Source of the DNA: Edaphochlamys debaryana
Taxonomy: Eukaryota; Chlorophyta; Chlorophyceae; Chlamydomonadales
Assembly: GCA_016858145.1 (NCBI GenBank)
Contig: JAEHOE010000022.1
Location: forward strand, 992,001-1,056,000
Reading direction: 5' to 3'
Length of the DNA stretch: 64,000 bases
Shown here piece by piece: positions 39,301 to 64,000 of this stretch (positions within the stretch are counted from its first letter, which is position 1; each line of letters opens with the position of its first letter). Below the pieces are notes generated by a model. The model made no database searches and was not told where the DNA came from. It saw nothing but the letters and a program-made list of their open reading frames with translations. Made by a program: the position numbers and the translations under genes.

Positions 39301-42300
39301 TCGTCGGGTCCGTGCGCCGCCTGGGGTGCGACAGGGGCACAGACAGGGGCGCATGTGATCGAAACGGAAGGGGGTTGAGCAGCACGGGACGGCGACAGAT
39401 AACACAGCACGGCCCGGAACTCCGCAGCACAGCTCACAACCGTCAACAACCCATCCGCATCAGCATCACACTGCAATGCAGCACGGCTCATCGCAGCGGG
39501 GCACAGTCCAGCACACGGCACGCAGCACGCTGGGGGCCGACCCACCACCTCGAGCTGATAGAAGAAGCGACCAACATCGCGAACCACGGCACAGCACTCA
39601 GCGCGCAGCGCCCAGTTACTAAGCCACGGCGCAGCACGCAGCACGCAACACGCAGCACGCAACACGCAGCACAGCCCACCGCACGCAGCACAGCACGCAG
39701 CACGCAGGGGGCCGACTCACCACCTCGAGCTCGTAGAAGACGCACCCCGAGATGAACACCACGCCCAGCAGCGTGAGCGCCAGCTCCAGCGAGCGGCGCA
39801 CGAACGCCAGTTGCATGGGCTGCACGGACTTGCGGCTGTAGCGCAGCACGGTAGAGGTGAGGACCTTGAGCAGGCGTATCACCTGACAGGGGGGGCAGGG
39901 AGGGGGAGGGAGGAGGGGGGCGTATTGAGCGTGTTGAAGCTATGGGGGAGGGGGGTCAGGGGTGTGCAGAGCTTGGGGGTGTACAGAGCTGGAGGGCAGG
40001 GGGCAGGAAAGCGGGTGGGGGGGTATGCTGCTCGCACGCAGGCTGCCGTACACACACCCTCTACGGCGCCGTACCTGGATCACCCGCATGAGCCGGATGA
40101 AGCCCAGCCCCGTCACCATGGGATCGTCCACGAAGAACACGATGCCAAACATGACGGTGATCAGGTCAATGCTGTGCGGGGACGAGGGGGAGGAGCGGGG
40201 GGGGGGGGGATGCACAGAGTAGGCTCAAAACCTGATAGCAGGCAGAACGAAGCCAGGTTTGGATGGCTGGTGCGCCGGTCTGCGGCCACTCGATGGCAGG
40301 CGCGCCCTCGCAGGTGCGAAGACTCCATGCACTGCTGTACGAACCAAGCCACGCCTTACGGCAACGCACATGGACCAGTCCCAGAAGATGTACTGCAGCA
40401 GGTTGCGCGCCGCAAACAGCTTGGCCACGTACTCGATACCGAAGGAGACCTGCGTACGGCATTGAACGGCAGCGTTTGGTGACACGCTGGCCACATCCAC
40501 GTTGGGCTCCCGGCTCAGGGCCCCCATCCGGCGTGTGGAATCGCTCCCTCTCTGCGTCCACCCAGCTGCCCCTCCCTGCTGCCGATCCACGCGCACCTCT
40601 CCAGCCCCGCTCGTCAGACGCCTCCTCACTCCTTCCCTTCCCCCCCCCCCAGTGCGCATCGGGCTCGCTGGCTGCCGCTCTATCTCTTCTTCCGCTCTCC
40701 AATGCTCCGAAAACCACCCCCAGTGCCCCCCCACACCGAGCAGGTCAGGTACACGATGCGAGTGATGTTGTCCACATTCTGCCGCCGAGGAGGAGCGGGG
40801 GGGAACGGAGGGGAGGAGGCGAGGGCGAGCGAGGGCGTTGACGTGGTGGAGGGTGAGGATGTGAGCAAGCGACTTCATGAGTCAATTGGATACCGGTAAC
40901 GCTCCAAGTCAAATGAGAAGCTGAAGCCCATCGGACGCTGCGCCGAAAGTCGGGGAGGCAAGGCGGAATTTCCCCTGGCCTTTTTATACCTTTCCCGATG
41001 GTGGCGCATGTCGCCCTCACACCCACCCCAACCAGCACTTCAACCTGCACCCTCCCCTGAGCACGCCCCCCCCACCTGGTACGTGTTCCAGCAGTACATC
41101 GCCACAGAGACTAGCGACGCGATTGCATTGTATATCTGCCGTACAGATAGAAGCGGGGACGAGCGGGTTGAGAGCGCTGTCTCGGGGATATGGCAGTGGG
41201 GGCGGCCGCGCGCGCCCAGGCCCAGCGAGGCACTGCCAGCCGGCCCAACACGCCAGGCCCAGCCAGGCCCGGTCTGACAAGCAACACCGTACAACGCCGC
41301 CGCGCTGGAGCCACGCTCGGGCCCCCGGCTGGGATCGCGAACCTGCAGCTGCCACCAGCCTGCCCCACACGTGCCATCGCAGGGGGCCCAGCGCGTGCCG
41401 GCCGTCTGTGCTTCGCAGCCGCCAATGCCCCCAGCTGCGCGCAGGGAAAGGCCCCTGTGCACCGCGCGCCCAGCCCTGGGGCGCGCCGCGTCGGGAATGC
41501 CCAAGGTCTGCACGCGGTCCACCGCACAGGGTGAGCCCATGAGGCCAGCAGCCCAACCCAAGCGACCCCGCCGGAGAAGGAGCAGCTGTGAGGGGGCCGC
41601 TAGCTCGGGGTTCGCGCCAACGGTATGTGAGGTGAGGCGCTGTCACAGGCGGCGGCGAAGCCCTCCTCACGCCACCCGCACAGTGACTCGCCGTCAGCCG
41701 ACCCGGCTGCCGCCGCCGCCGCCGCAGGCGTCGCTGCTCCCTCCCACTCCCTCCACTCTCCGCTCACGCCCCTACCCACTCCCTCCCGAAGCAGCCACCG
41801 ACCGCTCCGTCGCGGAAACCCAGCCCGCGCCCTGCGCCTCCCCCCGCCTCCAAGCCCAGCTGCCTTTGGGTCTGCCACGCGCTCCCGCCCATGCCTAGCC
41901 CGGCTCCCTCTGGGGCGGTAACCGATGGCCGAGATGACTCGGGCCGGAGCCCGTGGCATCAAGGCTCCACGCTGCCACCACGCTGATGTGGGTCGGCGAG
42001 CAAGGGCGGCGGGGCCCCGTACGCGCCCCGTCCCCCTTGACCGCAGGCCCGAGGCCAGGGCGCGGCCCGGGTGGCCCAGGGCTCACGCGCGGGCGGACGG
42101 CGCCCGCTGCCTTCCCTCCGCCCGACCCAGAGCTGATGTGGGTCGGCAAGCACCGGATGCCTCTGACGCGGCAGGGGCGTTGGACAGGGGCGAGGCCGGC
42201 GCGGCCTGGACAAAAACAAGCGCACAGTACCCCCTATCCTAGCTCCGCCGCCCGCAGCAGCGCTGATGTGGGTCGGCGAGCGAGGGCTGCCCCCATTCAA

Positions 42301-62176: not shown

Positions 62177-64000
62177 ATGAGCCAGGCGCCAAGCCTCCGA
62201 CCTAGGACTCCTTGCATAGTTGCGGCCTGTCGGACGCCTTTGGGAGCGTTCCAGGGCGCGCTCTCGCAGTTCTCGGCGCCGGAGCTCGGCGCCATCGCGA
62301 TAAGGGGTGAGCAGCGGTGGTCTGGGGACTTCTTGTGGGCTGGGATGTTTTGTCCCAGTTCTCAGCCCAGGGGACAGGCGAGCGCAGGCCCTCCCCACAT
62401 CCTCGTCATGATATGGCTGCGTCGGCCGCTGGCGTGGCCAGCCGACGCAAGCAGCGTATAGCTGGTACTCACTTTCCGTGCTTGGCGAAGGCCCGATCCT
62501 GCAGCTGCGACGGCGCCCTGACGCGCCCCAACCGCTGCGCCCCGCCGCTTTGGGCCTGCGCCCCCGCCCGCGCTTCCACCCGGCGCCCTCACCCCTTACC
62601 CCGTCGCAGACCTGGCCCTATAGACCGCTTCCTCAATCATCCCCAACCCGCCGTCGCACCCCACCCCCCTCTGGTCCTCTTCCGGCCCCGCCACCCTCTC
62701 CATCCCCCCCACCAAACCTCCCCTTTCACCTCCCTACCCCTACCCCTCCCCACCAAACCCCAAAACCCCTCCCCTCACCCACCCCACACTTACAGGCGCC
62801 CTGGACCGGGCGGGTGTGCGCCCCGATGACGTGGACGAGGTCATCTTTGGATGCGTCATCTCGGCCAACCTGGGCCAGGCCCCCGCCACGCAGGCGGCCC
62901 TGGGGGCGGGGCTGCCGGCCTCCGTGCCCTGCACCCTGGTCAACAAGGTGGGGAGGGGGGAGGGGAAGGGGGGAGGGGAAGGGGGGAGGGGGGGGGGAGG
63001 GAGATCGATGTAGGGGGTGGTGTAGATGTAGGGGCGTTTGGGGTGTAGGGACGAGTGCTCGAGGCGTGAACCAGGCGCGGTGCCGTTGTGGGCGGGACGG
63101 GTCGGCTTCCCTGCTGCCGCCCCTCAACCCTTTCCACTCCTTTCCTCCCTTCCCCACTCCCCCCTGTCAGGTCTGCTCCAGCGGCCTCAAGTCAGTCATG
63201 CTGGCGGCTCAGGCCGTCATGGCGGGTAGGGGGGGGAGGGGGGGGGAGGGGCGCTAGGGGGAGAGGAAGAGCAGGGAGGGGGGGGAAGAGAGGGGAAGCC
63301 GCCACGGCTGTTGCGCAGGGCGACAGTCACAGAACCCTGAGCAACCGTCCTCGCCCTCCCTCCACCCCCCTGACCCCCATGTCCTCCCTCTCCCCCTCCC
63401 CCTCCACCTCCCCCTCCCCCTCCCCCCCCAGGCAGTGCTGACGTGGTGGTGGCGGGGGGCATGGAGTCCATGAGCAACGCCCCGCACTACCTGCCGCAGG
63501 CGCGCAGGGGGCTGCGCATGGGTGAGCGGCCGGGGGGGGAGGGACGGGGGAGGGAGGGGGGAGGGAGGGGGGAGATCTTTGACGAGGTAGAGGTTGAAAA
63601 GCCCAGAGGTTGGTATGGCGGCAGCCAGCGAGCCCGATGCGCACCGAGGTCCAGAGCGAAAGGTCCGGCCAGGGGGGGAGGGAGGAAGGAGGAGTGGGGG
63701 GGAGGGGAGAGAACGGGGCTGCGGGGGATTACTGCATGGGGTGAGGGAGGGCGGCAGGGGGCGGGAAGCATCAGGCTCAGGGCAATCCACGGCCCCACCA
63801 CTCCCTCTTGCGCCTCAGGGCAGGTGTGATCGGGCGGGGCCTCGCAGGCTGAATGGAGGGTGGGCCGAAGGTGCATTGGCCCCTCCCCACCTGCCCTCCC
63901 TCGTCCTCCCCCCTTTTGGGTCCCAGGCGATGGCCAGGTGGTGGACGGACTGGTCAAGGATGGGCTGTGGGATCCGTACGGCAACGTGCACATGGGCAGC
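62177..64000 (+). CDS. ACAT: Acetyl-CoA C-acetyltransferase (thiolase), 5' part
   Basis: Condenses two acetyl-CoA into acetoacetyl-CoA, or runs in reverse; it feeds the mevalonate-type, ketone or amino-acid pathways depending on the organism. Five exons are in the window: 62177-62306, 62796-62947, 63171-63225, 63432-63521 and 63927 to beyond the edge, with consistent phases. Thiolase N-domain signatures: IVAACRTPLGAFQGALS, VDEVIFGCVISANLGQAPAT, NK then VCSSGLKSVMLAAQ with the acyl-accepting cysteine near residue 96, and VVVAGGMESMSNAPHYLP. The final KDGLWDPYGNVHMGS matches the acetoacetyl-CoA thiolase type rather than 3-ketoacyl-CoA thiolase. The first residues, MSQAPSLRPRTP, carry no obvious transit peptide, so a cytosolic location is likely. 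Intron 4 contains dispersed repeat B and intron 2 ends CCCCCTGTCAG. Confidence 0.95.
63612..63643 (+). repeat. Dispersed intronic repeat B, copy in the thiolase gene
   Basis: Reads GGTATGGCGGCAGCCAGCGA then GCCCGATGCGCAC, in intron 63522-63926. It is the longest match to the BK copy. Confidence 0.85.

What the first reader, a model, noticed from the sequence alone, without database searches (positions are those of the whole stretch)
40652..63643. A sense-oriented repeat shared by introns of three unrelated genes
A block of 19-36 bp centred on GCGGCAGCCAGCGAGCC occurs in introns of the BK channel (40652-40687, minus), NFS1 (48451-48476, plus) and the thiolase gene (63612-63643, plus). In each case it lies in the transcribed sense direction. 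Two copies share 25 consecutive bases, far beyond chance even in GC-rich DNA. A repeat confined to introns and to one orientation suggests spread as part of introns (introner-like elements) or a functional RNA motif such as a splicing enhancer or small-RNA source.
Basis: partly seen in the sequence, partly recalled or inferred. Interest (0 to 1): 0.8.

Follow-up and report, generated by a model that had tools for sequence, protein, structure and literature searches.

The report
Retroelement tails beside algal splice sites
The short repeat shared by three introns is the tail end of a telomerase-like jumping gene that lands in runs of G right next to splice sites, in either direction, so many introns of this green alga carry broken copies of it.

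Summary
The shared block is real but is a fragment of a larger element. The 17-mer has 259 exact copies in the 141.9 Mb genome (reversed control: 0). It lies about 38 nt from the fixed end of a repeat whose other end stops 17 to 1,400 nt beyond the motif start. The longest copies run into a reverse-transcriptase ORF whose relative is predicted to fold like telomerase. They are 5'-truncated Penelope-like retroelements, probably Chlamys-type. Of 62 copies, 57 are predicted intronic. In 55, an exon end lies within 75 nt on the fixed-end side: 35 at donors (sense), 20 at acceptors (antisense). 'Sense only' therefore fails. Long G-runs in the window are distributed much the same way, so G-run targeting can explain the intron bias. 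Flanking G-run duplications (18 of 50; 5.8 expected) and normal intron remainders favour insertion into existing introns over introners. Families B (RT-encoding) and C follow the same placement rule. Separately, 26 of 413 predicted introns (0.5 expected) hold a copy of their upstream exon edge; one array has 17 units. This suggests introns growing at their splice junctions. The alga is probably Edaphochlamys debaryana (inferred from assembly metrics).

The parts
40652..40716 (-). Family A copy in the BK-channel gene intron, donor side, sense (3' end of the retroelement read in antisense)
   Evidence: 98.4% over 62 nt to the family A1 head/core, exon end 21 nt from the match start; intron between predicted exons 40735-40778 and 40370-40513 on the minus strand
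40717..40734 (-). Donor and G-run next to the BK copy; GCACTGGGGG is repeated at the far end of the element (candidate target duplication)
   Evidence: Sequence; alignment of flanks
48424..48476 (+). Family A copy in the NFS1 intron, donor side, sense
   Evidence: 90% over 41 nt to A1; intron 48384-48669; sequence
63574..63669 (+). Family A copy in the thiolase intron, donor side, sense
   Evidence: 92.5% over 93 nt to A2; intron 63522-63926 once the copy is masked
58760..58802 (+). Family B 3' end, acceptor side, antisense to its gene; exon end 27 nt away
   Evidence: 100% over 43 nt
28999..29034 (+). Family C 3' end, acceptor side, antisense; exon end 58 nt from match start
   Evidence: 97% over 36 nt
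58109..58142 (+). Family C 3' end, acceptor side, antisense; exon end 29 nt from match start
   Evidence: 100% over 34 nt
36643..36665 (-). Repeat D, donor side, sense, exon end 22 nt away
   Evidence: 100% over 23 nt
49798..49820 (+). Repeat D in the NFS1 gene, donor side, sense, exon end 29 nt away
   Evidence: 100% over 23 nt
49646..49667 (-). Repeat D in the NFS1 gene, acceptor side, antisense, exon end 25 nt away
   Evidence: 95% over 22 nt
50239..50265 (+). Copy of the upstream exon edge (27 nt, 93% identical) inside the NFS1 intron that starts at 50186

Best explanation
The repeat is the 3'-terminal part (seen in antisense in the finding) of a Penelope-like retroelement. Shown: one end is fixed and the other truncated at many points; the longest copies continue into an RT ORF; the fixed end abuts a G-run that in most copies lies just inside a splice junction; both orientations occur; the G-run is repeated at the far end more often than expected. 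Inferred: a nick at the 3' side of a G-run provides a primer, the 3' end of the element RNA pairs with it through C residues, and reverse transcription runs away from the exon and usually stops early. Introns of this alga have G-runs after donors and C-runs before acceptors, so the element lands in sense beside donors and antisense beside acceptors, its tail towards the exon in both cases.
For: 259 exact copies, 0 reversed controls. Fixed end and variable far end, 17-1,400 nt past the motif start in 62 copies. L070, L071 and L072 are contiguous from the fixed end into the RT ORF, 94-99% alike over 1.2-1.3 kb. ORF homologues in volvocine algae (8 at E<=0.001); more distant ones with RVT_1 and N-terminal GIY-YIG matches. 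Model of the relative P0001, mean pLDDT 81.1; its 12 best PDB matches are telomerases. 55 of 62 copies have an exon end within 75 nt on the fixed side, 3 of 62 within 110 nt on the other side. Window G-runs of 7 or more: 77 of 94 intronic, 66 of 94 within 75 nt of an exon end and outside exons, 4 of 94 with an exon within 75 nt on the other side. Anchored duplications in 18 of 50 copies against 5.8 expected, p=6e-6. Family C fresh sample: 6 of 8 within 75 nt.
Against: Duplications were not detected in 32 of 50 copies, and G-rich flanks make them hard to judge. The endonuclease was not seen whole in this genome, and Pfam does not recognise the alga's own RT ORF. TM-scores to telomerases are modest, 0.36-0.46 by query length among the top 12. 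Families differ in side: A 35 sense to 20 antisense, B and C 3 to 14 (Fisher p=0.0017); pure G-run targeting does not predict that. Gene models are my own; intron states were started G-rich and C-rich, which could inflate the G-run control. No empty site was compared.
Confidence: 0.85

Rival explanations
1. Introners: each insertion into an exon creates a new intron, so repeat and introns spread together.
For: Strong intron bias and closeness to splice junctions; similar TE-made introns are known from other aquatic lineages (PMC9860276, passages read).
Against: The element starts inside the intron and ends inside it; a median of 244.5 nt of other intron sequence remains (54 of 62 copies), like ordinary introns (233 nt). 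Both orientations occur. Truncated lengths differ from copy to copy.
Confidence: 0.05
2. A LINE-type (not Penelope-like) element, or a SINE mobilised by one; the linked RT is misassigned.
For: 5' truncation, short target duplications and a simple-sequence target fit any target-primed retroelement.
Against: Telomerases are the best fold matches; GIY-YIG plus RVT_1 proteins are among the distant homologues; independent copies are contiguous with the RT ORF.
Confidence: 0.06
3. A conserved functional RNA motif of host introns (splicing enhancer or small-RNA source).
For: High conservation of the motif; a hairpin is predicted over it with z -4.2 against 60 column shuffles.
Against: 20 of 55 placed copies are antisense to the gene; far ends are arbitrary; seven 159-bp copies, the query's own included, are 100% identical on seven contigs, which speaks for recent copying; the hairpin shows no double compensatory change.
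Confidence: 0.03

Closest known systems
Chlamys-type Penelope-like elements of green algae (recalled from Craig and colleagues 2021; that paper was not held)
   Same: RT related to telomerase, close homologues in volvocine algae including C. reinhardtii, a CxC motif before the RT (seen by eye in L075), 5' truncation, no hammerhead match
   Different: Target: long G-runs, which here means the ends of introns. Recalled targets of that group are other simple repeats and, in spike moss, ribosomal DNA. A complete N-terminal endonuclease was not seen in this genome's copies.
Introners (PMC9860276, passages read)
   Same: Mobile, intron-located, close to splice junctions
   Different: These copies sit in introns that keep an ordinary length without them, occur in both orientations and are truncated at random; no de novo intron was shown.
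Telomerase and endonuclease-less Penelope-like elements at chromosome ends (recalled)
   Same: A telomerase-like RT; priming on a G-rich 3' end would follow the same logic
   Different: Targets are internal G-runs in genes, with target duplications

Membership tests
Penelope-like elements | RT related to telomerase | tested here: met
   Predicted structure of P0001 (47% identical to the L070 ORF over 88% of it): the 12 best PDB matches are telomerases. Tested on the relative, not on the alga's own protein.
Penelope-like elements | GIY-YIG endonuclease in the same protein | tested here: inconclusive
   Distant homologues P0023 (20.7 bits, below the 22.6 cut-off) and P0025 (25.5 bits) have it N-terminal of the RT. 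No Pfam match in P0001, P0009-P0013, P0020 or P0021. L075 shows at most the end of such a domain, by eye.
Chlamys-type (N-terminal endonuclease) Penelope-like elements | CxC motif between endonuclease and RT (feature recalled) | tested here: met
   By eye only: CEC in L075, CAC or CEC in P0011, P0012, P0013
Chlamys-type (N-terminal endonuclease) Penelope-like elements | Pseudo-LTRs and tandem or inverted insertions (recalled) | not tested
   No full-length copy with flanks was analysed
Penelope-like elements | Hammerhead ribozyme (absent in the N-terminal type by recall) | tested here: not met
   No hammerhead among Rfam matches up to E 5 in L070 1-2600, L075 and L076; this agrees with the Chlamys type as recalled
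Target-primed retroelements | Fixed 3' end, variable 5' end, target duplication | tested here: met
   duplications in 18 of 50 against 5.8 expected
Introners | Insertion creates the intron | tested here: not met
   Remainder of host introns 244.5 nt median in 54 copies against 233 nt in 92 window introns. Indirect: no empty orthologous site was available.
   35 sense, 20 antisense; families B and C 3 sense, 14 antisense

The most novel reading that the evidence does not exclude
Introns of this alga grow outward at their splice junctions. Several retroelement families (A, B, C) and a small hairpin-like repeat (D) insert at the G-run beside a donor or the C-run beside an acceptor. Some events duplicate the exon edge together with its splice site; splicing then uses the outer copy and the inner one decays as a decoy inside the intron. 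Repetition builds long introns, up to 17 tandem units of repeat plus exon edge.
Probability: 0.45. Interest if true: 0.75.

Novelty: new variant of a known kind. Interest (0 to 1): 0.58.

Why it matters
Telomerase-like retroelements that use G-runs beside splice sites would be a new target choice for Penelope-like elements. They would also offer a concrete engine for the unusually long introns of Chlamydomonas relatives, whose cause the comparative genomics paper leaves open (PMC8226300, passages read). The exon-edge copies give a record of events at splice junctions and make splice-site duplication and hand-over testable by RNA sequencing.

Tried and rejected
A codon-usage scorer alone was too weak. 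At its threshold of 5 it placed 43 of 62 copies and 115 of 307 control G-runs, and it called the BK copy wrongly. The gene finder replaced it. I first took the exon-edge copies (10 of 62 beat all 60 shuffles) for family A's own target duplications. I dropped that, because 49-175 nt of other sequence lies between element and copy in the nine strongest cases, in L014 partly a family B end, and the element's own duplications are short G-rich stretches. Rfam in L070 1-2600, L075 and L076: matches up to E 5 only, all below gathering scores, no hammerhead. Pfam on the alga's RT ORF: no credible match. PDB by sequence: nothing better than E 0.37. Literature: searches returned 0 papers. Searches returned listings with abstracts' beginnings. 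Passages were read in PMC8226300, PMC9860276 and PMC11722881. The paper on Chlamys and Naiad elements is recalled only. In these searches I saw no report of Penelope-like insertion at G-runs beside splice sites; the library lacks most subscription journals.
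Full report
WHERE WE ARE. The window is G000:C22:992001-1056000 of a genome of 141,892,200 bases in 502 contigs; window GC is 68%. Size and longest contig (4,216,157) resemble Edaphochlamys debaryana as given in PMC8226300 (142.14 Mb, 527 contigs, GC 67.1%, longest contig 4.2 Mb; passages read). The identity is an inference; the contig numbers differ.

THE OBSERVATION. The 17-mer is at the three stated places. A hidden Markov gene finder that I wrote and trained on the window and four loci puts all three in introns. 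The predicted proteins read across those introns and match BK_channel_a, Aminotran_5 and Thiolase_N. Genome-wide there are 259 exact copies, 133 forward and 126 reverse, and none of the reversed pattern.

THE FULL ELEMENT. A 159-bp stretch around one copy gives 40 scored hits of 462 candidates; 7, the query's own place included, are 100% identical, on 7 contigs. The other end stops at many points; in 62 copies it lies 17 to 1,400 nt past the motif start. A few copies, such as L045, lack a clear head. Long copies L070, L071 and L072 match pairwise over 1.2-1.3 kb at 94-99%. On the other strand L070 has an open frame whose stop is about 660 nt from the fixed end, with motifs such as ARDFTRLYTNLPL, GIPMGTSPATYIANLFLGWYEYQF and RFLDDLLAL. 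So the fixed end is the element's 3' end, and the finding shows the element in antisense.

WHAT KIND. The ORF has 8 homologues at E<=0.001, with Pleodorina, Volvox africanus, Gonium and C. reinhardtii among the named ones. A search from P0001 gave 27, including P0023 and P0025 with RVT_1 matches (27.9 and 26.3 bits, both below the 29.6 cut-off) and N-terminal GIY-YIG matches (20.7 and 25.5 bits, cut-off 22.6). The AlphaFold model of P0001, with 16 sequences, has mean pLDDT 81.1. Of its 18 PDB matches at E<=0.001 the first 12 are telomerases and two more are too; the rest are group II intron and related bacterial RTs; TM-scores are modest. That is what a Penelope-like RT should resemble. A CxC motif is visible by eye in L075 and in algal relatives, as recalled for the Chlamys type. 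A complete endonuclease was not seen in this genome's copies.

WHERE IT LANDS. Sample: loci L001-L068. Six are duplicates, and two (L032, L034) were dropped because no motif was found. The BK and NFS1 window copies were added; the thiolase copy is L065. That makes 62 copies. L001-L008 and L039-L068 are the first places in contig order of their patterns; L009-L038 are the best matches to one copy. With the element masked, 57 of 62 are labelled intron, 38 sense and 19 antisense; 2 intergenic and 3 exon labels remain. From the fixed end an exon end lies within 75 nt in 55 of 62: 35 sense (donor side), 20 antisense (acceptor side). On the other side an exon is within 110 nt in 3 of 62. The sense excess is weak (35 of 55, p=0.058; 38 of 57, p=0.016).

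WHY THERE. In the window, uniform positions are 36% intronic (2,705 of 7,482). G-runs of 7 or more are 82% intronic (77 of 94); 75 of 94 lie within 75 nt of, or inside, an exon on the left (66 outside exons) and 4 have an exon within 75 nt on the right. Introns carry 21.7 G5+ runs per kb in the first 40 nt against 4.3 in the middle, and 28.8 C5+ runs per kb in the last 40 nt (92 introns); intergenic sequence has 3.2 G5+ runs per kb. The element's distribution is about what insertion at long G-runs would give; no splicing-linked mechanism is needed. Caveat: the intron states of the gene finder were started G-rich and C-rich and then re-estimated.

TARGET DUPLICATIONS. I compared the 24 nt before the fixed end with the sequence after the truncated end in the 50 copies with a recognisable head and a far end below 1,000. 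In 18 of 50 there is a match anchored at both ends, against 5.8 expected from swapped pairs (p=6e-6). Without anchoring, 10 of 50 reach the 95% level of the null (2.5 expected). Examples: L006 (15 nt), L017 GGGGCTCGAGGGG, L067, BK GCACTGGGGG.

NOT INTRONERS. In the 54 copies where both intron ends could be placed, the median intron is 410 nt, the element 95.5 nt and the remainder 244.5 nt; 92 window introns have a median of 233 nt. The copies most likely landed in introns that already existed. No empty orthologous site was available to prove it.

OTHER FAMILIES. Shared 15-mers in the flanks revealed family B (253 exact copies of part of its head) and family C (380). L075 and L076 carry RT sequence of family B. 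L076's 3' end meets a donor G-run by the gene finder; L075's meets a C-run, AG and a likely exon by eye. Of 21 B and C copies in loci and window, 17 have an exon end within 75 nt on the G-run side, 3 sense and 14 antisense; 3 have an exon within 75 nt on the other side. The side preference differs from A (Fisher p=0.0017) and is unexplained. Of 8 freshly fetched C copies, 6 are within 75 nt (2 sense, 4 antisense), one at 94 nt, and one has no exon called. In the window the 9 copies of A, B, C and D listed under parts have an exon end 21-58 nt to the G-run side of the match start; a tenth, 15-nt partial D match at 29178-29192 does not follow the rule.

EXON-EDGE COPIES. Of 413 predicted introns, 26 hold an internal copy of the end of the preceding exon at score 28 or more (0.5 expected from swapped edges), and 6 a copy of the start of the following exon (0.33 expected); in the window alone 3 and 1 of 83. 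Most of these introns come from loci chosen for family A, so the rate may be biased, and a few hits (L019, L045) look like simple or tandem repeats. Repeat D (76 exact copies, many in arrays) lies between exon and copy in several cases, by eye L016, L024, L047 and L061. At G000:C2:2766150-2768500 seventeen D motifs are spaced 114-120 bp, each unit with a close copy of the exon edge and its acceptor; Tandem Repeats Finder gives 17.8 units of 117 bp, 85% matches. G000:C67:164250-164950 has four D motifs 134 bp apart. Whether these arise from D's own long target duplications or from plain tandem duplication is open.

RNA MOTIF. In 30 distinct rows (36 copies) of the 3' end a hairpin over the motif is predicted, z -4.2 against 60 column shuffles. 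Its pairs are nearly invariant; the few changes are one-sided, so there is no covariation support. It may be an RT recognition site; untested.

Noticed in passing
L085 (G000:C2:2766150-2768500) and L086 (G000:C67:164250-164950): Intronic tandem arrays in which each unit (about 117 or 134 bp) holds repeat D plus a close copy of the neighbouring exon edge with its splice site; 17 and 4 D motifs respectively.
   Followed up: partly
413 predicted introns of the window and loci: 26 introns hold an internal copy of their upstream exon edge (0.5 expected) and 6 of their downstream exon edge (0.33 expected).
   Followed up: partly
Families A versus B and C: Family A leans to donors (35 to 20), B and C to acceptors (14 to 3); the difference (p=0.0017) is unexplained.
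   Followed up: no
window 16833-16900: A 30-bp direct repeat with long exact shared words at a 30-bp spacing.
   Followed up: no
window 28999-29034 and 58109-58142: Two family C ends sharing 22 or more identical bases, both on the acceptor side of introns.
   Followed up: yes
L059: The family A motif occurs twice, 43 bp apart, as a tandem duplication in one copy.
   Followed up: no
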